The notes under the pieces are model-generated. The model had not been told where the DNA came from and did not search any database. It was given only the letters and a program-made list of their open reading frames with translations. A stretch of 64,000 nt of DNA from an uncultured Bacteroidales bacterium (lineage in GTDB: Bacteria > Bacteroidota > Bacteroidia > Bacteroidales > Bacteroidaceae). Positions 1-63,603 of the stretch are shown here, piece after piece. Numbering within the stretch: position 1 is the stretch's first letter; each line of letters opens with the position of its first letter. The translations under genes were made by a program, and so were the position numbers. Location of the stretch: positions 62,001 through 126,000 of the forward strand of contig CACZCZ010000003.1 of the NCBI GenBank assembly GCA_902779845.1, in the 5' to 3' direction.

Positions 1-1581
1 AAGGCCGTAGAAGCCCTCTCGGAGTTCTGCTGTGCGCTGGAAATCAATGTCCCGACAGGTAAGGACAGTCTCTCCATGACCCAGAAATATCCCGATGGCA
101 CGAAGGTCATCGCGCCGGGCACCGTCATCGTCACTTCCGGCGGTGAGGTCAGCGACATCCGCAAGGTTGTGAGCCCCGTGCTGGCTGATGAACCTAAGAG
201 CGCCCTCTACCATATCGACTTCTCATTCGATGAGCTGCGTCTCGGTGGCAGCGCCTATGCCCAGAGCAAAGGCAAGGTGGGCAGCGATGTGCCGACGTGC
301 ACGAACCCCGAATACTTCCGTGATGCCTTCGATGCCGTGCAGGACTGCGTGAAGAAGGGACTGCTGCTGGCTGGTCATGACATCAGTGCCGGCGGTCTTA
401 TCACCACGCTCCTGGAGATGTGCTTCGCCAACACGAAGGGCGGCCTGAAGGTCAACCTCAACAACTTCGCCTGCGAAGACCTCACGAAAATCCTCTTCGC
501 CGAGAATCCCGGTGTCGTGGTGCAGGTCAGCACCAAGCACGAGGAGGAGTTCAAGAAGCTGATGGACGAAGCCGGCGTGGGCTATATATATATAGGTGTA
601 CCTGCCAAGGAGCGTTCGCTGCGCATCCGCAAGGGCGACTTCGAGGAGACGCTCGACATCGACCAGCTGCGCGATGTCTGGTATCGCCCGTCCTACCTGC
701 TCGACACGAAGCAGAGCATGAACGGCTGTGCCGCAGAGCGCTTCAAGAACTATAAGAACCAGCCTTTGGAATGGCGCTTTGCGCACACCATAAACCATAA
801 ACCCTCATCCCTCAACCGCCGCCCCAAGGCCGCTATCATCCGCGAGAAAGGTACGAACGGTGAGCGTGAGATGGCCTACAGCCTCTACCTCGCCGGCTTC
901 GACGTGAAGGATGTCATGATGACCGACCTCATCACGGGCCGCGAGACGCTGGACGACATTCAGATGATTGTCTTCTGCGGCGGCTTCTCGAACTCCGACG
1001 TCCTCGGCTCTGCCAAGGGCTGGGCCGGTGCCTTCCTCTACAATCCTAAGGCCAAGTCAGCCCTCGACCGCTTCTATGCCCGTCCCGACACCCTCTCGCT
1101 GGGCATCTGCAACGGATGCCAGCTGATGGTGGAGTTGGGACTGCTGGGCTACAAGAGCGGCGAAAAGATGCTCCACAATACCTCGCACAAGTTCGAGTCC
1201 GCCTTCCTCGGCCTCACCATCCCCCAGAACAACAGCGTGATGCTCGGCTCGCTGGCCGGCTCGAAGCTGGGCATCTGGGTGGCTCACGGCGAGGGTAAGT
1301 TCCATCTGCCGCAGCCCGAGAGCGACTATCATGTGGTGGCCAAGTACAGCTACGACCAGTACCCCGGCAACCCCAATGGCTCCGACTATAGCGTCGCCGG
1401 CCTCTGCTCTGCCGACGGCCGTCATCTGGCCATGATGCCTCACCTCGAGCGCGCCATCTTCCCCTGGCAGTGCGCCTACTATCCCGCAGACCGCCGCAAG
1501 GACGAGGTGACACCGTGGCTCGAGGCGTTCGTGAATGCAAGGAAGTGGTGCGAGCGCGCCAAAGGCGCGGTTGAGGGTTGA
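1..1581 (+). CDS. purL: Phosphoribosylformylglycinamidine synthase, C-terminal part (5' end outside window)
   Basis: Large-form FGAM synthase, which converts FGAR, glutamine and ATP to FGAM in purine synthesis. Only the last 526 residues are present; the frame is open from base 1 (VPTGKDSLSM at residues 18-27). Residues 1 to about 260 are the C-terminal synthetase (AIRS-like) domain. From about residue 275 comes the class I glutaminase domain: nucleophile Cys370 in GICNGC, His429 in AHGEGKF, and His481/Glu483 in PHLER. An odd insertion, NHKPSSLNRRP, sits at the linker between the two domains (about residues 264-274) and is encoded by an in-frame short tandem repeat. The last residues (VEG) and the stop codon also lie in a repeat array, which continues past the gene. 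The full protein in this group is about 1230 residues. The identification is secure. Confidence 0.97.
   Translation, partial: KAVEALSEFCCALEINVPTGKDSLSMTQKYPDGTKVIAPGTVIVTSGGEVSDIRKVVSPVLADEPKSALYHIDFSFDELRLGGSAYAQSKGKVGSDVPTCTNPEYFRDAFDAVQDCVKKGLLLAGHDISAGGLITTLLEMCFANTKGGLKVNLNNFACEDLTKILFAENPGVVVQVSTKHEEEFKKLMDEAGVGYIYIGVPAKERSLRIRKGDFEETLDIDQLRDVWYRPSYLLDTKQSMNGCAAERFKNYKNQPLEWRFAHTINHKPSSLNRRPKAAIIREKGTNGEREMAYSLYLAGFDVKDVMMTDLITGRETLDDIQMIVFCGGFSNSDVLGSAKGWAGAFLYNPKAKSALDRFYARPDTLSLGICNGCQLMVELGLLGYKSGEKMLHNTSHKFESAFLGLTIPQNNSVMLGSLAGSKLGIWVAHGEGKFHLPQPESDYHVVAKYSYDQYPGNPNGSDYSVAGLCSADGRHLAMMPHLERAIFPWQCAYYPADRRKDEVTPWLEAFVNARKWCERAKGAVEG
788..817 (+). repeat. In-frame short tandem repeat inside purL
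   Basis: Units of the type CCATAAA and CCCTCAA lie inside the purL reading frame and encode KPSSLNR-like residues at the interdomain linker. The same units occur at 1975-2032 and 2553-2586. Confidence 0.8.
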
Positions 1582-1603
1582 AGGTTGAGGGTTGAGAGTT
1601 TAG
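1569..1603 (+). repeat. GGGTTGA heptamer array, left flank of S23 gene
   Basis: About five copies of a GGGTTGA/AGGTTGA heptamer. The array contains the purL stop codon (1579-1581) and lies just upstream of the S23 gene. It is the reverse complement of the unit in the array at 1975-2032, so the two arrays form inverted flanks around that gene. Confidence 0.85.
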
Positions 1604-1624
1604 ATAAAACATCTATGAAATCAA

Positions 1625-2017
1625 ATGGAAAGACTTTTTAATTTCCAGAAATTAGAAGTTTACCAATTCTCTAAGGAGTTGGTTAAGATGGTCTATCAGT
1701 TTCTCAAACGATATCCACAAGAAGAGAAATATGCGTTATGTGACCAACTCAGACGCGCCACTATGTCCATCCCGTCCAACATAGCAGAAGGGATGTCACA
1801 TTCCTCCCCAAAAGAGAAGGCATATTTTCTTGAAACGGCATATGGTTCGTTGATGGAAGTTGTTTGCCAATTGGAAATTTCAAGTGAGCTCGGATATATT
1901 ACCCCAGAAGATTATTCAAATGCAGATACTTTAATGAGAAGAATTGCAAAAATGTTATCTCGCTTGAAGGAAGTAACCCTTACCCCTCAACCCTCAACCC
2001 TCAACCCTAAACCCTAA
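1625..2017 (+). CDS. Four-helix bundle protein (S23 / IVP family)
   Basis: 130-residue all-helical protein of the four-helix-bundle family first known from 23S rRNA intervening sequences and related to the Avd accessory protein of diversity-generating retroelements. Family features are the start FQKLEVYQFSKELV, the core LCDQLRRATMSIPSNIAEG and a tail of amphipathic helices. No catalytic residues are known for the family; relatives are basic and bind nucleic acid. The function here is unknown. The last residues (TPQPSTLNPKP) are encoded by the downstream heptamer array, so the original C-terminus was probably near KEV. The gene lies between purL and chrA, bracketed by inverted repeat arrays, which suggests it arrived as a cassette. 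No 23S rRNA or reverse transcriptase is nearby. Confidence 0.88.
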   Translation: MERLFNFQKLEVYQFSKELVKMVYQFLKRYPQEEKYALCDQLRRATMSIPSNIAEGMSHSSPKEKAYFLETAYGSLMEVVCQLEISSELGYITPEDYSNADTLMRRIAKMLSRLKEVTLTPQPSTLNPKP

Positions 2018-2032
2018 ACCCACCCCTCAACC
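1975..2032 (+). repeat. CCCTCAA/CCCTAAA heptamer array, right flank of S23 gene
   Basis: About seven heptamer units (CCCTCAA, then CCCTAAA, then CCCTCAA again) running from the end of the S23 gene up to the ATG of the first chrA. It is inverted with respect to the array at 1569-1603. Confidence 0.88.
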
Positions 2033-2569
2033 ATGCTATCTCTTTTTAAAGTATTTTGGGGTGTCGGCCTCTTCACTATTGGCGGCGGCTATGCCATGAT
2101 ACCGCTGATTGAGGCGAAGGTGGTGGATGAGAGGCAGTGGATCAGTCGCGAGGAACTCTTGGACCTGATGGCCGTGGCACAGTCCTGCCCAGGTATCTTT
2201 GCCGTGAACATCGCCATCTTCATCGGCTACAAGATTCGTGGTACGTGGGGAGCACTGATGGCCACCCTGGGCTGCATCCTGCCTTCGTTCCTCATCATTC
2301 TTGCCATCGCCCTCTTCTTCCGTCAGTTCCAGGATAATGTGTGGGTAGCACGTGCCTTCCGTGGCATCCGTCCCTGCGTCGTCGCTCTCATCGCGGCACC
2401 GACGTTCAAGATGGCTAAGAGCGCTCAGATTTCTCGCTACAATATCTGGATTCCCGTCCTTGGTGCCTTCCTCATCTGGATGTTCGGTGTCTCGCCCATC
2501 TGGGTCATCATTGCCGCCGGCTTAGGAGGCTATCTGTATGGCAAATACATTGCAACCCCTCAACCATAA
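2033..2569 (+). CDS. chrA: Chromate transporter, half-size subunit 1
   Basis: 178-residue inner-membrane protein with a single CHR domain. The N-terminal motif is VGLFTIGGGYAMIPLI, followed by WISREELLDLMAVAQSCPG and an NxAxFxGY segment, with about five or six membrane helices. Short-chain ChrA proteins usually occur as adjacent pairs that work together, as here with the gene at 2587. The family exports chromate or related oxyanions, but in anaerobic gut bacteria the true substrate is uncertain. The last four residues (TPQP) come from the repeat array that overlaps its stop codon. The ATG directly follows the previous array. Confidence 0.9.
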   Translation: MLSLFKVFWGVGLFTIGGGYAMIPLIEAKVVDERQWISREELLDLMAVAQSCPGIFAVNIAIFIGYKIRGTWGALMATLGCILPSFLIILAIALFFRQFQDNVWVARAFRGIRPCVVALIAAPTFKMAKSAQISRYNIWIPVLGAFLIWMFGVSPIWVIIAAGLGGYLYGKYIATPQP

Positions 2570-2586: not shown

Positions 2587-3159
2587 GTGATATTCTTCCA
2601 GCTCTTCTATACCTTCTTCCTCATCGGCCTCTTCGGCTTCGGCGGTGGCTATGCGATGATCTCCATGATTCAGGGCGAGGTCGTCACCAACCACCATTGG
2701 ATGACGATGGGCGAGTTCACAGACATCGTGGCCGTATCGCAGATGACACCCGGCCCCATTGGTATCAACTCAGCAACGTATGTCGGCTACACCGCTGTCG
2801 TCAATGCCGGCGGCTCTGAGTGGATGGGCATTCTCGGCTCTGCGACCGCAACTTTCGCCGTCGTGCTTCCCTCGTTCATCCTGATGCTGATGATTTCCAA
2901 GTTCCTGATGCAGTACAAGCATCACCCCTCCGTGGAACACGTCTTCACGGGCCTTCGCCCTGCTGTCGTAGGTCTCTTGGCCGCTGCCTGCCTGTTGCTG
3001 ATGACGCCTGAGAACTTCTCCACGCCGTCCGACTCACCCTGGCAGTTCTGGATCAGCATTGCCATCTTCGTCGGCACACTCATTGCCTGCCAGGTGTATA
3101 AGCTCAGTCCCATCCGCACGCTCCTCTTCTGTGCCCTCGTCGGAATACTGCTTTTTTAA
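2587..3159 (+). CDS. chrA: Chromate transporter, half-size subunit 2
   Basis: 190-residue single-domain CHR membrane protein, partner of the preceding gene. The conserved stretch FGFGGGYAMISMIQGEVV is followed by VAVSQMTPGPIGINSATYVGY, the CHR proline/glycine signature. It has about six hydrophobic segments. The start is GTG at 2587; no ATG fits, because the sequence just upstream is the heptamer array and a GTG directly after it gives the expected N-terminus (IFFQLFYTFFLIGLFGFGGGY). The array may have replaced the original start region. It is probably cotranscribed with subunit 1. Confidence 0.9.
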   Translation: MIFFQLFYTFFLIGLFGFGGGYAMISMIQGEVVTNHHWMTMGEFTDIVAVSQMTPGPIGINSATYVGYTAVVNAGGSEWMGILGSATATFAVVLPSFILMLMISKFLMQYKHHPSVEHVFTGLRPAVVGLLAAACLLLMTPENFSTPSDSPWQFWISIAIFVGTLIACQVYKLSPIRTLLFCALVGILLF

Positions 3160-3178
3160 TTGATAATGTATAAATGAC

Positions 3179-3200
3179 GTTCAATGTTCAATGTTCATTT
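3179..3200 (+). repeat. GTTCAAT heptamer array
   Basis: Three near-perfect GTTCAAT units downstream of the second chrA gene, just before the MITE-like element. Confidence 0.6.
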
Positions 3201-3210
3201 GTCAATTCTC

Positions 3211-3580
3211 TTTTTTTAACAACGAATTAAGCGAATTAGACGAATTTTTTTAACAACTTGTTATCATTCAATTTTAATCGAATTTCACGGATTCCAGAGC
3301 GAAGCGCTTCGCGGGCTTCGAAAGCCACACACTGAGTATGTCCTTATTCGAACGCCACACATTGCTCAGTTCGATGCTTAAGTAACTTCTGTTTTCACTC
3401 GGCACCTGCGTAGCGTGCCGCCCCAATTTGTGAAATTCGTTATTCATTGTTTGTGTGCGCCAGCCCAAAAATTAACTTTGTTGGTTTTTGTCACGACTCG
3501 GCCATCCGAAAGCAAGCTTTCATGGCGCTCGCTGCTCCAAAAATTCGTTAAATTCGTGTAATTCGTTGTTCGAAAAAATC
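3211..3580. mobile_element. MITE-like element with inverted CGAATT-type repeat arms
   Basis: Fills most of the gene-free stretch 3160-3729. The left arm (3218-3251) is three 9-nt units of the type AACGAATTA; the right arm (3538-3572) is the same units in inverted orientation with about 85% match. The 286-nt interior has a small hairpin (GCGAAGCGCTTCGC at about 3299-3312) and a 64-codon minus-strand ORF (3274-3468, MGWRTQTMNNEFHKLGRHAT...) with no recognisable domain. It shares the inverted-array architecture of the S23 cassettes but carries no recognisable gene. Confidence 0.6.
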
Positions 3581-3650
3581 AGGAGCCTGTGCGCTGTCGC
3601 ACGGTTATGGGTTCATGGTTAAGGGGTTAAGGGTTTAATGTATAATTGGT

Positions 3651-3671
3651 ACGCCGGCACGGCGTTTTTTT
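3651..3671 (+). terminator. Rho-independent terminator
   Basis: Short hairpin ACGCCG-gca-CGGCGT followed by seven T residues. It would end rightward transcription, for example from chrA. Confidence 0.65.
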
Positions 3672-3696
3672 ATGGTAGTTCTTTCTTTGCGCAGCT

Positions 3697-3742
3697 AATT
3701 ATACATTATACATTATACATTATCAATTATCAATTATACATT
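3697..3742 (+). repeat. ATTATAC heptamer array overlapping the comEC 3' end
   Basis: Six units of ATTATAC/ATTATCA. The array contains the comEC stop codon (3730-3732) and encodes its last residues MYN. A single inverted unit (AATGTATAATT) lies at 3637-3647 on the other side of the terminator. Confidence 0.8.
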
Positions 3743-5487
3743 AAAAAGCGCAGTGCCCCCTTCTCTGCCACATCATAGACAGCCCATCCCAGCTGCGTGG
3801 CCTCTGCTGCGAGGCTGAGGCGTTGCCATTGAGGCAGGCTGGCGTCGAGCACCAGCAGGCGAGGGCGATAGGCCTCGGCGAGTGTGCCCAGCCTGCCGCC
3901 ACGGAACCCTCTTACCACCCACAGCACATCCACCTCCGCTGTGGTTCTGTACGCGGCAGTATCCCCGTCTCCGCTGTCCACCATCACAGCCTTCAGTCCC
4001 TCTTTCAACACTACCGCTTTCCTTCCCCTCAGCACCTGCGGCTCTGCCGTCAGTCGGCGTCTCCAGAAGTCGCGGCGGATGTACTTCATCCCCGTTTCCA
4101 GCGAATCCGGTTCCGGCGTCAGCAGCCAGCTCTGTTCGGGCGAGGCGATGACGTGCAGTGCCGGGCAGCGACGGTTGTGATAGACCACCACCTGCGGCTC
4201 TGCCTTGCGGCTCCAGAAGTCGTGGATGATGGCTCCCGGCCAGTGTGCTGCCTGCGCCATCAGCCACAGCTGTGCCCCTACGATCCATGACAGGCCTGTG
4301 CCTAACCACCCTGCAGCCATCGGCCACAGCCATGACAGCAGGATGAGCAGCAATGCGAGATAGAGCAAGAGCGTGGTCAGCGGTATCAGCACGATGCTCA
4401 GCAGCGGGCCATAGAGCGGTATCTGGTGGAAGTAAAGGGCCACCAAAGGCAGCGTCAGCACCTGAGCACAGAGCGACACCGCTACCAGCTTGAAAGGCCA
4501 TAGCAGCCAGTAGCGTTCCAGACGGAAGACCAGATAGCGCCAGCGGTTGAAGATCCATACATACAAAGGATGATAGAAGAGCAGGATGCCCGCCACAGCC
4601 AGGAAGGACAGTTGGGCACCGACATCGAACAGATACATGGGCTGCCACAGAAGCATCACGATGCCCGTGAGCAAGAGATGTTGCAGCGGCGAGCCATAGC
4701 GCTGCAGCAGACTCGCCACCACGAAGATGGAGGTCATCAGCGCGGCCCGCACGAGCGATGCCGGCATCCCTGCCAGGAAGGTGTAGCCCCCGATGAAGAG
4801 GAGGATCATCACGCCCACAACCTTTCGCCACCGCGACAGCAACAGCCTGCTGTTCATCCATGTCAGCAGCAGCCCCACGATGATGCCCAGATGCAGTCCG
4901 GACAGCGCCAGCAGATGACTGGCGCCGGCTTGTGCGTAGAGGTCGCGTGTGTCTTGTTTCAGCAGCGAGCGGTCGCCCATTGTCATCGCGCTCACGATGG
5001 CGAGCGTCTGTTCCTCTATCCCCAGCGTCTTCACCCGTGACAGCATCTTCTCGCGCCACGCGATGCCCTTGCTCATCGGTCCTGCGTCATCACCCTTTTT
5101 CCTGCCCGTGGCGCCGCTCACCCATTGCCATCGTGCCACGTCGAACTCGTCGGGATTTCCTCGGCTCACGGGTCGCCCCTTCACCGCCCATTCCCGATGC
5201 TGCCGCTCTGCCACCGCGGCATAGCGTGCGAAGCCTACCGACAGGAAGAACAGGAATGTCAGCACAGAGAAGACGGGGTAGCGATGCACCAGCGGGTGCC
5301 GCAGCACCTGACGATAGCGGAGCAGTGCCAGCAAGGCGAGGACAAGGCAAAAGCCCCATGGGGCCAATTGCACCCACAGGGCTTTTGTCAAGTCTGTTGC
5401 CATCCATGTGGCATCGTACAGAAGGATGTCGCCCGCTGCAACTCCCGCCACCAAGGCGAAGAATGCGATGACGACCGGGCGGCTCAT
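3730..5487 (-). CDS. comEC: ComEC/Rec2 family competence DNA-channel protein
   Basis: 585-residue polytopic inner-membrane protein of the ComEC/Rec2 family, which forms the channel for DNA import in naturally competent bacteria. The N-terminal soluble region (about residues 60-130) precedes the competence domain with LYAQAGASHLLALSGLHLGI, the signature HLLALSG(L/M)H. A run of membrane helices extends to about residue 430. The C-terminal region (about 440-585) is a shortened hydrolase-like segment without a full metallo-beta-lactamase HxHxDH motif, which is common in Bacteroidales. The start overlaps the rpe stop by 4 nt (ATGA), indicating translational coupling. The last three residues come from a repeat array. 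A role in competence is inferred from the family. Confidence 0.9.
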   Translation of the reverse strand: MSRPVVIAFFALVAGVAAGDILLYDATWMATDLTKALWVQLAPWGFCLVLALLALLRYRQVLRHPLVHRYPVFSVLTFLFFLSVGFARYAAVAERQHREWAVKGRPVSRGNPDEFDVARWQWVSGATGRKKGDDAGPMSKGIAWREKMLSRVKTLGIEEQTLAIVSAMTMGDRSLLKQDTRDLYAQAGASHLLALSGLHLGIIVGLLLTWMNSRLLLSRWRKVVGVMILLFIGGYTFLAGMPASLVRAALMTSIFVVASLLQRYGSPLQHLLLTGIVMLLWQPMYLFDVGAQLSFLAVAGILLFYHPLYVWIFNRWRYLVFRLERYWLLWPFKLVAVSLCAQVLTLPLVALYFHQIPLYGPLLSIVLIPLTTLLLYLALLLILLSWLWPMAAGWLGTGLSWIVGAQLWLMAQAAHWPGAIIHDFWSRKAEPQVVVYHNRRCPALHVIASPEQSWLLTPEPDSLETGMKYIRRDFWRRRLTAEPQVLRGRKAVVLKEGLKAVMVDSGDGDTAAYRTTAEVDVLWVVRGFRGGRLGTLAEAYRPRLLVLDASLPQWQRLSLAAEATQLGWAVYDVAEKGALRFLMYN

Positions 5488-18654: not shown

Positions 18655-19011
18655 CTAAACTTCGTCGCGGGAGGACTTGATGGTCGCTGCTAATAAGCGT
18701 AGTAGTTCGTCGCAGTCTTCCTTCATGGATTGATAAGTGGCTTCTGTAATATAGCTTGCATGATATAAAAGATGGATCCAATATTCTGTTTCGCCAGCTT
18801 CTTTTTGGGCGACTTGTAGTTTGTTGATAAAGTCTGCCTTGCTTTGTGCATAAATACCTTCATGAATATTGGCGCCGATACTTGTCCCAGAACGATATAT
18901 CTGGTCTGACATCATATATTCATGTTTTTTGGTTGTTAAATATTTCCTACAATTAACAATACGAACGCCAAAAGCCTTCGACTTCTCTGCTAAGATGTTA
19001 TTGTTAATCAT
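18655..19011 (-). CDS. Four-helix bundle protein (S23 / IVP family)
   Basis: 118-residue helical protein of the same family as the gene at 1625 but a different subfamily. It has the signature SDQIYRSGTSIGANIHEG followed by AQSKADFINKLQVAQKEAGE and TEYWIHLLYHASYI. The function is unknown; relatives sit in 23S rRNA intervening sequences or act as nucleic-acid-binding partners of retroelement reverse transcriptases. It separates the ClC gene from fmt and is flanked on both sides by inverted AT-rich heptamer arrays (18619-18654 and 19012-19051), as though a cassette had entered an existing operon. The gene's AT content is higher than its neighbours'. Confidence 0.9.
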   Translation of the reverse strand: MINNNILAEKSKAFGVRIVNCRKYLTTKKHEYMMSDQIYRSGTSIGANIHEGIYAQSKADFINKLQVAQKEAGETEYWIHLLYHASYITEATYQSMKEDCDELLRLLAATIKSSRDEV

Positions 19012-19051
19012 CTTTATATTTTATATTTTATCTTTTATATTTTATATTTTT
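19012..19051 (-). repeat. TATAAAA heptamer array, upstream flank of S23 gene 2
   Basis: Five TATAAAA units (one TATAAAAG variant) on the minus strand, ending at the S23 ATG. Inverted relative to 18619-18654. Confidence 0.85.
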
Positions 19052-19061
19052 GGGGGAGAGT

Positions 19062-20843
19062 TTACTCTTCCGAAAGGTCATGTAGCATGGTGCGATAGGC
19101 TGCATAGACGTGGCTGCGACGGATGAAGCCTACGAAGAGGCCGTCGTTATCCACGACGGGGAGTGCCCAGGCTTGCGTGCGGTCAAAAGTCTGCATGACC
19201 AGTTCCATGGGGTCGTTCGTGGTCAGGCGCGCAGCACACTGCGACATCAGATCGCGGACAAAGACACGGTGGTAGAGCTCGGTGCGGAACATGACATGGC
19301 GCACGCGGTCGAGGACAAGGACGGCAAGGAGCTTGCCGGCATCATCTACGACCGGGAAGACATCGCGGTTGGAGGCTGACAGCTGGCGCACGATTTCGCC
19401 GAGGTCGTCGTCGAGATGCAGGTGCTCCTCGTAACGCTCGATGACGGAGTCCATAGACATCAGGGTGAGGATGGCGTGGTCCTTGTTATGTGTCACCAGC
19501 TCACCCTTGCGGGCCAAGCGCATCGTGTAGATGCTGTGAGGCTCGAAGAGGATGATGGTCAGGTAGGAGGCCACCGCCACAATCATCAGCGGGAGGAACA
19601 GGCCATAGCCGCCCGTCAGCTCGGCAATGAGGAAGATGCCGGTCAGGGGGGCGTGCATCACGCCGCTCATCACGCCCGCCATTCCCAAGAGCGAGAAGTT
19701 GTTCTCGGGAACGAGGATGCTGTTGCCGGGGAGCATGTTCCACAGCGATGCAAACAGGAAGCCCGAGACACAGCCCATGAACAGACTGGGGGCGAAGGTT
19801 CCGCCACATCCGCCGCCGCTGTTGGTGGCTGTGGTGGCGAAGACCTTGAAGACGATGATGCCTGCGAGGTACAGCAGTAACAAGTGGGGTGTGTGGTAGA
19901 AGAACGAACCCTCGAGCACTTGGTTCCAGTCGGCTTGCCCCTGACCGTTGAGCAGCAGGCGGATCATGCCGTAACCTTCGCCGTAGAGCGAGGGGAAGAG
20001 GAAGATGAGGATGCTGAGGATGGGACCTGCTATCAGCAGACGCTGCCATGGCTTGCGAATTCGGCGGAACTGATCTTCAAGCCAGTTCATGACGCGGGTG
20101 AAGTACAAAGAAATCAGTCCGCAGAATACACCTAATAATATATACGCGGGCACGCGCGCGATGGAGAAGGCATTGACGAGGTGGAACTCAAAGAGGTTGT
20201 CGGTGCCGGAGATGGCAAAGGTGACGGCAGCGGCGGTCACGCAGGACACCAGCAGGGGAAGGAGGCTGCCCAACGTGAAGTCTATCATCAGCACCTCCAG
20301 CGTGAAGACCAAACCGGCGATGGGCGCCTTGAAGATTCCGGAGACGGCACCGGCAGCACCGCAGCCCACAAGGAGCATCATCTTCTTGCTGTCCAAGTGA
20401 AACAGGCGGCCAAGATTGGAGCCGATGGCAGAACCCGTCAGCACAATAGGAGCCTCGGCACCGACGCTGCCGCCGAAACCGATGGTGATGCCTGACGCTA
20501 CGATGCTCGACCATGTGTTGTGGGCCTTGATGAAACTCTTCTTGCGCGCAATGGCGTAGAGAATCTTGGTGATGCCGTGGCCGATGTCGTCACGGACGAT
20601 ATAGCGCACGAAGAGTCCTGTCAGGAAGATGCCCACAACGGGATACACCAGATAGGGCCAGTTAGCGCCTGTGATGGAGAAATGGTTGGTCAGCAGATGC
20701 TCCACCTGCTGGATGAACCACTTCAGGAGCAGGCCGGCTAAGGCTGTCAGCACGCCGATGAGGAATGCCAGCAGCAACATCAATTGCTTCGAACCTGCGG
20801 TTGTCGTGAATCGAGTCCTTATCCTTTCAATTACAGCTGACAT
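19062..20843 (-). CDS. ClC-type chloride channel/transporter with two CBS domains
   Basis: 593-residue membrane protein of the voltage-gated chloride channel family. The ClC pore domain spans about residues 20-435 with the selectivity motifs GFGGSVGAEAPIVLTGSAIG (GxxGxExP type) and GGTFAPSLFMGCVSGFLF. Two cytoplasmic CBS domains (about 450-510 and 525-590) probably bind nucleotides and gate transport. It likely moves Cl- (or F-) across the inner membrane. It is transcribed in the same direction as sua5 and prfC upstream; a CGTTAT-type repeat lies just upstream at 20892-20926. The family is clear; ion specificity and channel versus antiporter status are not. Confidence 0.94.
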   Translation of the reverse strand: MSAVIERIRTRFTTTAGSKQLMLLLAFLIGVLTALAGLLLKWFIQQVEHLLTNHFSITGANWPYLVYPVVGIFLTGLFVRYIVRDDIGHGITKILYAIARKKSFIKAHNTWSSIVASGITIGFGGSVGAEAPIVLTGSAIGSNLGRLFHLDSKKMMLLVGCGAAGAVSGIFKAPIAGLVFTLEVLMIDFTLGSLLPLLVSCVTAAAVTFAISGTDNLFEFHLVNAFSIARVPAYILLGVFCGLISLYFTRVMNWLEDQFRRIRKPWQRLLIAGPILSILIFLFPSLYGEGYGMIRLLLNGQGQADWNQVLEGSFFYHTPHLLLLYLAGIIVFKVFATTATNSGGGCGGTFAPSLFMGCVSGFLFASLWNMLPGNSILVPENNFSLLGMAGVMSGVMHAPLTGIFLIAELTGGYGLFLPLMIVAVASYLTIILFEPHSIYTMRLARKGELVTHNKDHAILTLMSMDSVIERYEEHLHLDDDLGEIVRQLSASNRDVFPVVDDAGKLLAVLVLDRVRHVMFRTELYHRVFVRDLMSQCAARLTTNDPMELVMQTFDRTQAWALPVVDNDGLFVGFIRRSHVYAAYRTMLHDLSEE

Positions 20844-46057: not shown

Positions 46058-49000
46058 AATTCGAGAACGATGGTGGCCAGGCCCTGACCTTTGGTCTGTT
46101 TGCTGAAAACACCAACGCCAACTGGCTGAGCGCCGACAACTTCAAGCTCTACTATGTGGGCCAACTGACCGAGTCTCCCCACTACAAGAACCTGAAGAAA
46201 TACCTCGAGGAAATACTGCCTGCCTATAGTGCAGAAGTGACCTACTGTAATGCAGCTGCAAAGACGGCTCTGAACTCCGCCATTAATGTGGCAAGTGGCA
46301 TCACAACCGATGCAAGCGATGCCGAGTGCGATGCTGCCTACAGCCAACTGAAAGAGGCATACGAAGTTGTAACCGCTTCCGTAAAAGTGTATCAGAGTCT
46401 TTATGAAGCTATCCAGACAGGTGGCATCTATGATTCTTATGTAGCTCAGACCTCCAATAACGGATGGAACGACCTGAGCCTAGCTATCGCCAACAGGAAG
46501 AGTGAGCTTGAGAATGGTTACTACAACGGCACCTTCGCTGATGAAGACGTAGAGGAAGCTGTCAAGGGCGTGCTGCCTATGATTCGCACATGGGTAAGCG
46601 AGAACATCGCTGCCGTCCAGCCCGGCACAGACCTGACCATACTGTTGGAGAATGCAGACTTCGAGGATGGCAAATACAATGGTGGCTGGGATGCTGCCGA
46701 TGACGAAGTGCAGCCTGGCAAGGATTATGGAAGCCTCCCCGGATGGACCATCTCAAGCGGTAACATCACCCAGATGAACCATGTCATTGAAACCTTCCAC
46801 CGTAAGTTTGACTTCAACCAGACGATTCCCAATATGCCTGCGGGTGTGTATGACATCACGGTACAAGGATTCGTACGTCACGATGGCGACGCTACCGATC
46901 AGACCATCTTCTACGCCGGCAATCTCGAGACTCAGCTCATGCTGCGCAGCGATCAATGGAACGAAACCGGCTTCTATCTGACGGAGGATCAGGGTGACCC
47001 CTGCGGCGGTGCCAACAAGGACCAGGACATCATTGTCAATGAAACAACCGTGAAAGTGCCCAACGGCATGAGTGGTTTCTACTACTGGGAGAAGGAAGAG
47101 AACACCGAAGGCGCTTCTATGGATTATCAGGGTTGGCAGGCTGGCGACAAGTACTACACCAACCACATCAGGGTCGTTCTCAACGAGGCCGGTGATCTCA
47201 CCATCGGCATGAAGAGCTTGGGCACTACCGACTGGATTATCTGGGATAATTTCCAAATCAAGTATCTTGGATTAAATATCAACGGATTGTACGTAGGAAA
47301 GAACAATCAGCCCATCGAAGCCGGCGAGTCAGCAGACATCGAGATTGGACTGAAAAATGAGCTGACGAACCTCGTTGCCTTCCAAATGGATCTGACCTTG
47401 CCTGAAGGCATCGGCATCGACAAAGCCGGCTGCTCGCTGTCTTCACGTATCACAGATGCAGAGCAGGAACTGACAATCGGTAAGTTGGAGAACGGAGCAT
47501 ATCGCCTGACTTCATCGTCATTCTCGCTCACGCCTATCAGTGGCAATCTGGGCAAACTGATTAACCTGAAACTTACGGCTGCAGACGGTTGCGTGGGCGG
47601 TAAGGCTACAATTGGCAACATCCGATTCTCAACGGCAGAATCCGAACGCGTAACACTTGACGATGCTTCGTTCGACATTACTGTTAAGTACGGCATCGTC
47701 TATAAAGTGGATAACCAGGATTACAAGACAGAGAGCATTGCTTATGGTACTGAAATCATTCCTCCTTCGGTCGCCAAAAAAGAAGGCTACACCTTCAGCG
47801 GATGGAGTGAGGTGCCCGAAACGATGCCAAATCACGATGTTGTGGTGACGGGAACCTTCAGCATCAACAGCTACACGCTGACATACCAGTTGGACGGAGA
47901 GGTGTATAAATCAACATCTGTCGTTTATGGCGCTGCTATTACCCCTGAGGATGCGCTGTCCAAAGAGGGCTACACCTTCAGCGGCTGGAGCGAGATACCT
48001 GAGACGATGCCCGCCAGAGATGTTGTGGTAACGGGTTCTTTCTCGGTGAATAGCTACAATTTGATTTATAAGGTTGATGGAGAGGAGTACAAGACTTCAT
48101 CAGTAGCCTATGGTACGAAATTGACCTCCGAGCCCGCTCCCTCCAAGGAGGGTTACACCTTCAGCGGCTGGAGCGAGATTCCAGAGACGATGCCCGCCAA
48201 GGATGTCGTGGTAACTGGCTCCTTCACAATAGGTAGCTACACATTAACATACAAAGTAGATGGCGAAGACTACAAGACCGCTATCGTTGTCTATGGGACG
48301 CCCCTGACTCCTGAAGCCGAACCAACCAAGGAAGGGTACATCTTCAGCGGATGGAGTGAGATTCCTGAGACGATGCCAGGCAAGGATGTAGTGATTAGCG
48401 GCTACTTCTATCTCTATGGCGACGTGAACGCGGATACAGAGGTGGATGTTGTGGATGTGGTGGACATCGCTCGTTATGTAGTGGCAACACCATCTGCGAA
48501 GTTCCAGGTGAAGTTGGCTGACCTGAACGCCGATAACACGGTTAACATTGCGGACGCGGTAACCTTGGTGAGCCATATCGCAGGCAACCAGAACTTCGTT
48601 AAGGCAAAGAGTCCTTCAAGACAATCCTACAACTACGACCAATGCCAGTTGCAACTGCTCAGCAGTGGAACAAATGCATTGTCACTTAGCCTCAACGGCG
48701 ATGCAGACTTTACAGCGTTCCAGTTCGAAGTGACTGTACCTGACAATATGGACATCTCAGCGATCCGCATCAATGGCATGAGAAAGGATGGTCATCAGCT
48801 ATTATTTAATAAGGTGTCTGAGAATTGCTATCGTGTAGTAGCCCTTTCGCTTTCCAATGCTACCTTCAAGGGCCGTGAGGGTGAACTGCTGCAAATCAGC
48901 GTCAATGATCAGCCCACGGATGACATCAGCCTGAACAATATCCACTTCATCACCACGAATGGCGCTGACATCACCTTCGATGCGTTATATATTAGCACAG

Positions 49001-63486: not shown

Positions 63487-63603
63487 GAATTCACAATTCA
63501 CAATTCACAATTCACAATTAGGCCCTTGCTTGGACTTCCCTGCGAAGATGTTCGACAGGTCTTGTGAATTTTGAATTATGAATTGTGAACTGTTAATTGT
63601 CAA
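63487..63603. repeat. Inverted AATTCAC arrays between rpmF and fabH
   Basis: Five AATTCAC units (63487-63520) face inverted GTGAATT/GTTAATT-type units (63561-63603) across about 40 nt. Same architecture as the S23 flanks but with no gene between. Confidence 0.8.

What the first reader, a model, noticed from the sequence alone, without database searches (positions are those of the whole stretch)
1569..2032. S23 four-helix-bundle gene bracketed by inverted heptamer arrays (cassette 1)
A GGGTTGA array lies upstream and the inverted CCCTCAA array downstream of the S23 gene, and the arrays invade the stop codons of purL and of the S23 gene itself. The protein family relates to rRNA intervening-sequence proteins and to the Avd partner of diversity-generating retroelements. 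Together with cassette 2 this suggests a small mobile unit whose ends are simple repeats rather than classical terminal repeats.
Basis: partly seen in the sequence, partly recalled or inferred. Interest (0 to 1): 0.78.

Follow-up and report, generated by a model that had tools for sequence, protein, structure and literature searches.

The report
Tiny gene between mirrored DNA repeats
A very small bacterial gene (S23, a four-helix-bundle protein) sits between two mirror-image arrays of 7-letter repeats, and comparison with other genomes suggests that gene and arrays form one small mobile unit, seen in several bacterial groups, that may explain where scattered 7-letter repeats come from.

Summary
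An S23 gene (1625-2017) lies between a GGGTTGA array (1569-1600) and its inverted counterpart (1975-2032), between purL and chrA. Of 110 analysable S23 loci from the genus, 94 have locus-specific inverted complementarity between their flanks, against 6 of 363 control genes and 0 of 30 ParE loci. The unit differs between loci; left and right arms match. In other taxa, 44 of 76 loci show it (2.4% expected).

Gene plus arms behave as one unit. The site is empty in the nearest relative searched. At shared sites the cassette can be far more or far less diverged than its flanks. In Xanthomonas one operon junction holds an S23 cassette in 31 of 35 genomes and gene-less inverted arrays of another unit in 4. 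Across 198 genomes of the order, one heptamer-array pattern occurs in 84 of 147 with S23 and 4 of 51 without.

GxxExxY and DUF559 genes are bracketed too. Best reading: a small mobile element with the anatomy of 23S rRNA intervening sequences. Movement itself and the enzyme behind it are not shown; a test for selection on a sense-RNA stem came out against it.

The parts
1..1581 (+). purL 3' part; its last codons and stop are written by the first array
   Evidence: ORF list; Pfam GATase_5 etc.
1569..1600 (+). left (upstream) arm: GGGTTGA-type heptamer array
   Evidence: TRF; alignment with the reverse complement of the right arm, score 25
1625..2017 (+). S23 / four-helix-bundle gene (PF05635, TIGR02436), 130 aa
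   Evidence: the one PDB sequence match at E <= 0.001 is 2gsc (XCC0516), E 9e-20
1975..2032 (+). right (downstream) arm: inverted CCCTCAA array; writes the S23 C-terminus and stop, ends at the chrA start codon
   Evidence: TRF; sequence
2033..2569 (+). chrA (chromate transporter), the gene after the cassette
   Evidence: Pfam PF02417
19013..19050 (-). cassette 2, arm upstream of its gene (TTTATAT array)
   Evidence: TRF
18655..19011 (-). cassette 2, S23 gene (118 aa)
   Evidence: PF05635 98.9 bits
18618..18654 (-). cassette 2, arm downstream of its gene (AATATAA array)
   Evidence: TRF; own-locus score 32

Best explanation
The S23 gene and its two inverted short-tandem arrays are one compact unit of about 450-520 bp, a mobile element (or the autonomous member of a mobile repeat family) that settles at operon junctions in the direction of transcription, where its arrays can supply the stop of the gene before it. 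Shown: the inverted, locus-specific bracket; its presence in several phyla; empty sites; cassette-sized units with a history different from the flanks; sense orientation; gene-less paired arrays at the same junctions; co-occurrence of dispersed heptamer arrays with S23. Inferred: the S23 protein (a binding protein without known catalytic centre, kin of rRNA-intervening-sequence proteins) recognises the array or the hairpin it can form, host enzymes do the cutting and copying, and solitary or paired gene-less arrays are non-autonomous products or remains. The catalytic step is unknown.
For: Genus: own-locus inverted score median 28 against off-diagonal mean 13.5; 94 of 110 above the off-diagonal 95% point; direct orientation 17 of 110. 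Controls 6 of 363, ParE 0 of 30. Phyla: 44 of 76 above 21 against 2.4%; nine named isolates: 19 of 30 fetched loci (of 33 places) at 18 or more against 6.9%. Empty sites: purL-chrA; clcB-fmt with 1-2 bp gaps in two species. Discordant histories: L013/L028 flanks 92-93%, S23 70%, other arms; L082/L102 flanks 81-83%, S23 94%; identity changes at the cassette edges. 67 related pairs at different sites, similarity within -111 to +158 bp of the S23 domain; their arms are more alike than those of unrelated pairs (0.40 against 0.21). Purifying selection on S23: dN/dS median 0.046 in the 16 of 68 same-site pairs with usable dS. Co-directional in 136 of 141 tandem contexts against 105 of 138 small control genes. 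Xanthomonas accB-accC: S23 cassette 31 of 35, gene-less inverted arrays 4 of 35, and an S23 cassette with that same unit at carA-carB. Array pattern in 84 of 147 S23+ and 4 of 51 S23- genomes.
Against: No transposase or nuclease is encoded; no target-site duplication evident at two junctions. Solitary arrays of a genome do not match its own S23 arms significantly better than arms from other genomes (p 0.14, 0.07, 0.13). Arrays also occur in a few S23-free genomes (4 of 51; 9 of 51 with the mirror pattern), and 63 of 147 S23+ genomes lack the tested pattern. S23-free congeners also lack GxxExxY, so the association is not S23's alone. Copies look old: the closest different-site pair is 80% identical. 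16 of 110 genus loci and 32 of 76 others are not above threshold; only 8 of 30 in the named isolates are. G.U-type mismatches argue against selection for a sense-RNA stem (89 against 143 antisense-type).
Confidence: 0.62

Rival explanations
1. Arrays first: heptamer arrays are an independent repeat that spreads by another machinery; S23 (and GxxExxY) genes are passengers that settle between two array copies or pick them up from the site.
For: Solo arrays without S23 are frequent (57 arrays of all kinds in 464 kb of this genome) and sit at the same junctions in other species. Solo arrays are not tied to the genome's own S23 arms.
Against: A gene landing in one array would give direct, not inverted flanks; direct similarity exceeds background in only 17 of 110 loci. 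Related cassettes at different sites carry related arms. S23-free genomes have few or no arrays. Inverted array pairs within 2.5 kb are rare in 464 kb: 3 found, one of them cassette 2.
Confidence: 0.18
2. RNA-level intervening sequence: the bracket is kept because the transcript must fold into a stem that RNase III cuts out, as for 23S rRNA intervening sequences; mobility is incidental.
For: Same anatomy as the 428-nt Coxiella IVS with a 28-bp terminal stem and an S23 ORF (PMC4990558, passages). RNA of 1565-2040 folds with the arms paired and the ORF in the loop, z -5.1. Strong sense orientation.
Against: Mismatches in the arms do not favour sense-strand G.U pairs (89 against 143). No processing data. 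Host genes here are protein-coding, so excision has no evident use.
Confidence: 0.12
3. Resident operon gene with repeat decoration: slippage-prone arrays accumulate beside S23 and the two sides are homogenised by template switching; no mobility beyond ordinary recombination.
For: Many insertions are shared by several species at one site (68 same-site pairs). In 10 of 36 same-site pairs the two arms of a locus match each other better than they match the other species' arms; in the other 26 they do not.
Against: Empty sites, cassette-sized discordance in both directions, different-site relatives, gene-less replacements. Does not explain why S23, GxxExxY and DUF559 have the bracket and ParE and other control genes do not.
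Confidence: 0.08

Closest known systems
Intervening sequences (IVS) of 23S rRNA genes with an S23 ORF
   Same: S23 family gene inside a terminal inverted repeat; about 430-500 bp; sporadic (PMC4990558, passages); sense orientation in rRNA is recalled
   Different: Not in rRNA but between protein genes; arms are short tandem arrays that differ by locus; multi-copy; RNA excision not tested
RAYT transposases with REPs / REPINs (recalled; two papers seen as listing and abstract start only)
   Same: Small gene bracketed by inverted copies of a dispersed repeat; gene-less inverted pairs elsewhere
   Different: S23 is a four-helix bundle, not an HUH transposase; repeats are tandem arrays rather than REP palindromes. 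DUF559 cassettes here come nearer to REPs at their ends
Dispersed heptameric repeats: STRR of cyanobacteria (recalled), GGGAATC of Xanthomonas (PMC4692102), TAACTGA of Beggiatoaceae (PMC4679880)
   Same: Same kind of mainly intergenic 7-bp arrays; PMC4692102 reports 70 and 75 convergent GGGAATC pairs in two genomes
   Different: The term S23 has 0 occurrences in the main text of either paper; the abstract of PMC4679880 says no mechanism of transfer is evident
Diversity-generating retroelements (Avd protein)
   Same: Avd is a remote relative of S23
   Different: Avd models are below cut-off; no reverse transcriptase among the neighbours examined

Membership tests
S23 / 23S rRNA-intervening sequence protein family (PF05635, TIGR02436) | Profile match above curated cut-off | tested here: met
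   115.5 bits against 33.8; 107.6 against 24
23S rRNA intervening sequence | Located inside a 23S rRNA gene | tested here: not met
   Lies between purL and chrA
23S rRNA intervening sequence | Terminal inverted repeats able to form a stem around the S23 ORF | tested here: met
23S rRNA intervening sequence | Excised from the transcript by RNase III | not testable with these tools
   No RNA data
RAYT/REPIN | HUH (Y1) transposase | tested here: not met
   Only PF05635 and sub-cut-off bAvd match
RAYT/REPIN | Gene bracketed by inverted dispersed repeats, with gene-less pairs elsewhere | tested here: met
   Bracket; arms matching many dispersed places and gene-less pairs in Xanthomonas
Insertion sequence | Transposase gene | tested here: not met
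Insertion sequence | Target-site duplication | tested here: inconclusive
   None evident by eye at purL-chrA and clcB-fmt, but the compared species are diverged
Diversity-generating retroelement | Avd equivalog match | tested here: not met
   NF033474 36.7 bits against 80
Diversity-generating retroelement | Reverse transcriptase and template/variable repeat nearby | tested here: inconclusive
   None of the scanned neighbours (purL, two chrA, competence protein, epimerase, peptidase C10, fmt, chloride channel) is one; repeats of that type and the rest of the genome not searched

The most novel reading that the evidence does not exclude
A class of mobile elements not described so far: one small gene (four-helix S23, PD-(D/E)XK-like GxxExxY, or DUF559) between inverted short repeats, present across bacterial phyla, with S23 as the agent that creates and spreads the heptamer arrays known for decades in cyanobacteria, Xanthomonas and others, and 23S rRNA intervening sequences as the members that landed in rRNA.
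Probability: 0.45. Interest if true: 0.93.

Novelty: new variant of a known kind. Interest (0 to 1): 0.84.

Why it matters
Dispersed heptamer repeats and the common 'four helix bundle protein' genes have both lacked an explanation. If they are two parts of one element, the origin of these repeats, the function of S23 and the origin of rRNA intervening sequences become one testable question, and three families of small genes of unclear function could be reannotated as mobile.

Tried and rejected
Decayed cassette at 63488-63600 (inverted AATTCAC arrays around a short spacer resembling the start of cassette 2): best score 18, null 17.2 +- 7.5, and the null included the window's own S23 loci; not claimed.

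Solo arrays as direct offspring of the genome's own cassettes: not significant in three genomes.

Sense-RNA stem under selection: mismatch types point the other way.

S23 loci inside 23S rRNA: 16 of the 80 genome-contig loci were scanned; Rfam found only two riboswitches. The other 64 were not scanned.

Concerted change of both arms as a general rule: only 10 of 36 same-site pairs show it.

Rows dropped: L009 and L010 (below the Pfam cut-off) as probably not S23. In one search, 9 of 119 loci were left out for hits under 200 nt or flanks under 300 bp (L008-L010, L018-L020, L022, L032, L069); L008 shows arrays by eye (score 20). In one search, 4 of 80 for short flanks. In some searches same-site pairs were looked at, of the 68 counted.

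Structure prediction was not run: the phmmer match to 2gsc answered the fold question.

Full report
What is in the window. purL (end 1581), a heptamer array GGGTTGA (1569-1600), an S23 gene (1625-2017), the inverted array CCCTCAA (1975-2032) and chrA (2033) follow each other with little spare sequence. The arrays write the last codons and stops of purL and of S23. A second S23 gene (18655-19011, minus strand) lies between AATATAA/TTTATAT arrays and between a chloride-channel gene and fmt. The genome appears to be a rumen-type Bacteroidales MAG: the contig length of one congener, G051:C3 (156331), equals that of record CADCIP010000003.1, an uncultured Bacteroidales bacterium; this is an inference.

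Same genome. PF05635 finds ten places, eight over the cut-off. By eye all eight have short arrays nearby and seven have inverted ones, with a different unit at each: AAGTTTA, GGGTTGA, AATATAA, AATTTCA, GAGGGAA, TTTACAA, ACGATTT; L005 has arrays mainly in direct orientation, and L006 has both.

Genus. Of 61 genomes, 55 have a match, 50 over the cut-off. The match column sums to 260; I held 119 of them, mostly the best-scoring. For 110 of the 119 I aligned each upstream flank of 300 bp with the reverse complement of every downstream flank. Own-locus median 28; other loci mean 13.5, 95% point 21, 99% point 29. 94 of 110 own-locus scores exceed 21, 47 exceed 29; in direct orientation 17 exceed their 95% point of 18. 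The best-fitting arm period is 7 in 62 loci, and 14 or 21 in 15; 8 to 13 in many others. Controls at the same threshold of 21: 6 of 363 other ORFs, 0 of 30 ParE loci (30 of the 47 places listed).

Other taxa. Those above 21 include Bacteroidota, Verrucomicrobiota, Bacillota, Xanthomonas, Chloroflexota, Cyanobacteriota, Patescibacteria, Hydrogenedentota, Spirochaetota. In nine named isolates, 30 of 33 S23 places were fetched: 8 of 30 exceed 21, 19 reach 18 (off-diagonal 1.8% and 6.9%); these isolates were chosen because each already had a locus, so the two sets overlap. The signal is weaker there.

Arms have a polarity: upstream arms hold 25% G and 8% C (120 loci), and the G-rich strand points inward in 111 of 141 loci, outward in 28. 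Paired arrays in Xanthomonas were reported as convergent (PMC4692102, passages).

A unit. (a) Of 117 genus S23 loci, 52 take part in 67 pairs of related cassettes at different sites. Their similarity lies within -111 to +158 bp of the S23 domain; pairs aligned beyond about 300 bp had been classed as same-site, so the range is partly by definition. Their arms score 0.40 against 0.21 for unrelated pairs (4.2% of unrelated pairs reach 0.40). Three of the pairs lie in one genome. (b) Empty sites: of 30 purL loci fetched, only this genome has S23 directly after purL (G055 has one further down, next to chrA); 16 have chrA within 35 bp of the purL stop; the nearest relative by PurL identity, G041, has the purL stop overlapping the chrA start; several others have a solo array there. 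At clcB-fmt (20 loci; in 5 clcB was not found), two species have gaps of 1-2 bp; G000, G003, G042 and G048 have S23 cassettes (G048 with different arms); G016, G010 and G043 have a DUF559 gene; G040 has inverted arrays without an ORF of 60 aa. (c) Discordance: at one site with 92-93% identical flanks the S23 genes are 70% identical and the arms differ (L013/L028); at another with 81-83% flanks the S23 genes are 94% identical (L082/L102). Identity changes at or near the cassette edges in those two pairs. In most of the 35 same-site pairs S23 and flanks diverge about equally, as for shared descent. (d) Selection: dN/dS median 0.046, range 0.010-0.340, over the 16 of 68 same-site pairs with usable dS.

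Xanthomonas. At accB-accC (gene names read from the sequence), 31 of 35 genomes match the cassette-bearing query over its whole length; the 30 of these that were fetched all contain S23. In the other four the flanks are separated by 136-143 bp holding inverted GGGACCC arrays, too short for S23. X. dyei carries another S23 between GGGACC arrays; its flanks look like carA and carB (read from sequence). So one junction has received two array types, one with and one without the gene.

Orientation. Between two genes of one strand, S23 is co-directional in 83 of 85 cases in the genus and 53 of 56 elsewhere; small genes in control stretches 105 of 138, all genes 450 of 560; DUF559 18 of 18, GxxExxY 12 of 16, ParE 15 of 17.

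Arrays follow S23. Arrays per 100 kb: 12.3, 10, 5 and 3 in four S23-rich genomes, 3 in one with a single weak hit (G041), and 0, 0.5, 0 and 0 in four S23-free ones, from 46-464 kb each; shuffled sequence of the first five sets gave none. One array pattern over 61 congeners: S23-free 0,0,0,0,4,0; S23-bearing median 33 with 7 of 55 at zero; Spearman 0.46. The tool's control, the pattern read backwards, also matches in many of these genomes; it is itself a 7-bp array pattern. Over 198 genomes of the order from 120 families: 84 of 147 against 4 of 51, Fisher p 1e-10; with the mirror pattern 111 of 147 against 9 of 51; in 17 families with both states 9 favour S23+, 1 does not, 7 tie (31 of the 51 S23-free genomes are inferred by subtraction from the listing). 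Genome size was not corrected for.

Other genes in such brackets. GxxExxY (PF13366): 25 of 30 loci analysed exceed 21, direct 8 of 30, off-diagonal 7.4%. DUF559 (PF04480): 22 of 30 exceed 21, direct 1 of 30; by eye all 30 show GC-rich inverted hairpins, but these resemble each other between loci (off-diagonal 16.8%). All six S23-free congeners also lack GxxExxY, and have no DUF559 hit except one weak one, so the array association cannot be assigned to S23 alone.

Against. No evidence for a sense-RNA stem under selection; solo arrays not tied to own arms; no target duplication seen; only old-looking copies. The RNA of the cassette does fold with its arms paired (z -5.1), but inverted arms make that expected.

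Literature (open PMC library only). No paper held all of '23S rRNA-intervening sequence protein', 'inverted repeats' and 'tandem repeats'; of the 22 papers, 20 were listed, and the only listed one with both an S23-type term ('four helix bundle protein') and a heptamer term is on designed proteins. Further listings. Seen as passages: PMC4990558, PMC4692102, PMC4679880. The cyanobacterial STRR and REP/RAYT facts are recalled.

Noticed in passing
window 786-816: A heptamer array (CATAAACCCTCATCCCTCAACC) lies in frame inside purL, where PurL alignments of some other species break off (query positions about 28-40), so arrays seem tolerated in a protein linker.
   Followed up: partly
window 3155-3743: Gene-less region between the second chrA and the competence gene with nested inverted arrays (outer ATTATAC, inner ACGAATTA).
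   Followed up: no
window 63488-63600: Inverted AATTCAC arrays with a short spacer, upstream of a gene start; possible gene-less cassette, similarity to S23 not significant.
   Followed up: partly
window 19046-19062 and L376, L386: Beside cassette 2 lies a short C-rich piece (ACTCTCCCCC) like the end of DUF559 cassettes found at the same junction in other species; S23 may have entered or replaced such an element.
   Followed up: partly
L374, L379, L400-L429: DUF559 genes bracketed by inverted GC-rich hairpins with a non-palindromic tip, resembling REP/RAYT organisation.
   Followed up: partly
L170-L199: GxxExxY genes bracketed by inverted arrays of 8-9 bp units such as CACAGATTA and ACGGATTAA.
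   Followed up: partly
L016, L023, L028, L041: One S23 clade keeps an inner inverted box like GACGATAG next to the gene while the outer tandem unit varies.
   Followed up: no
L109 / L153 (G055): In another species an S23 gene lies downstream of the first chrA, one gene further along the same operon.
   Followed up: no
window 47959-48393: 183-bp tandem repeat, 2.4 copies.
   Followed up: no
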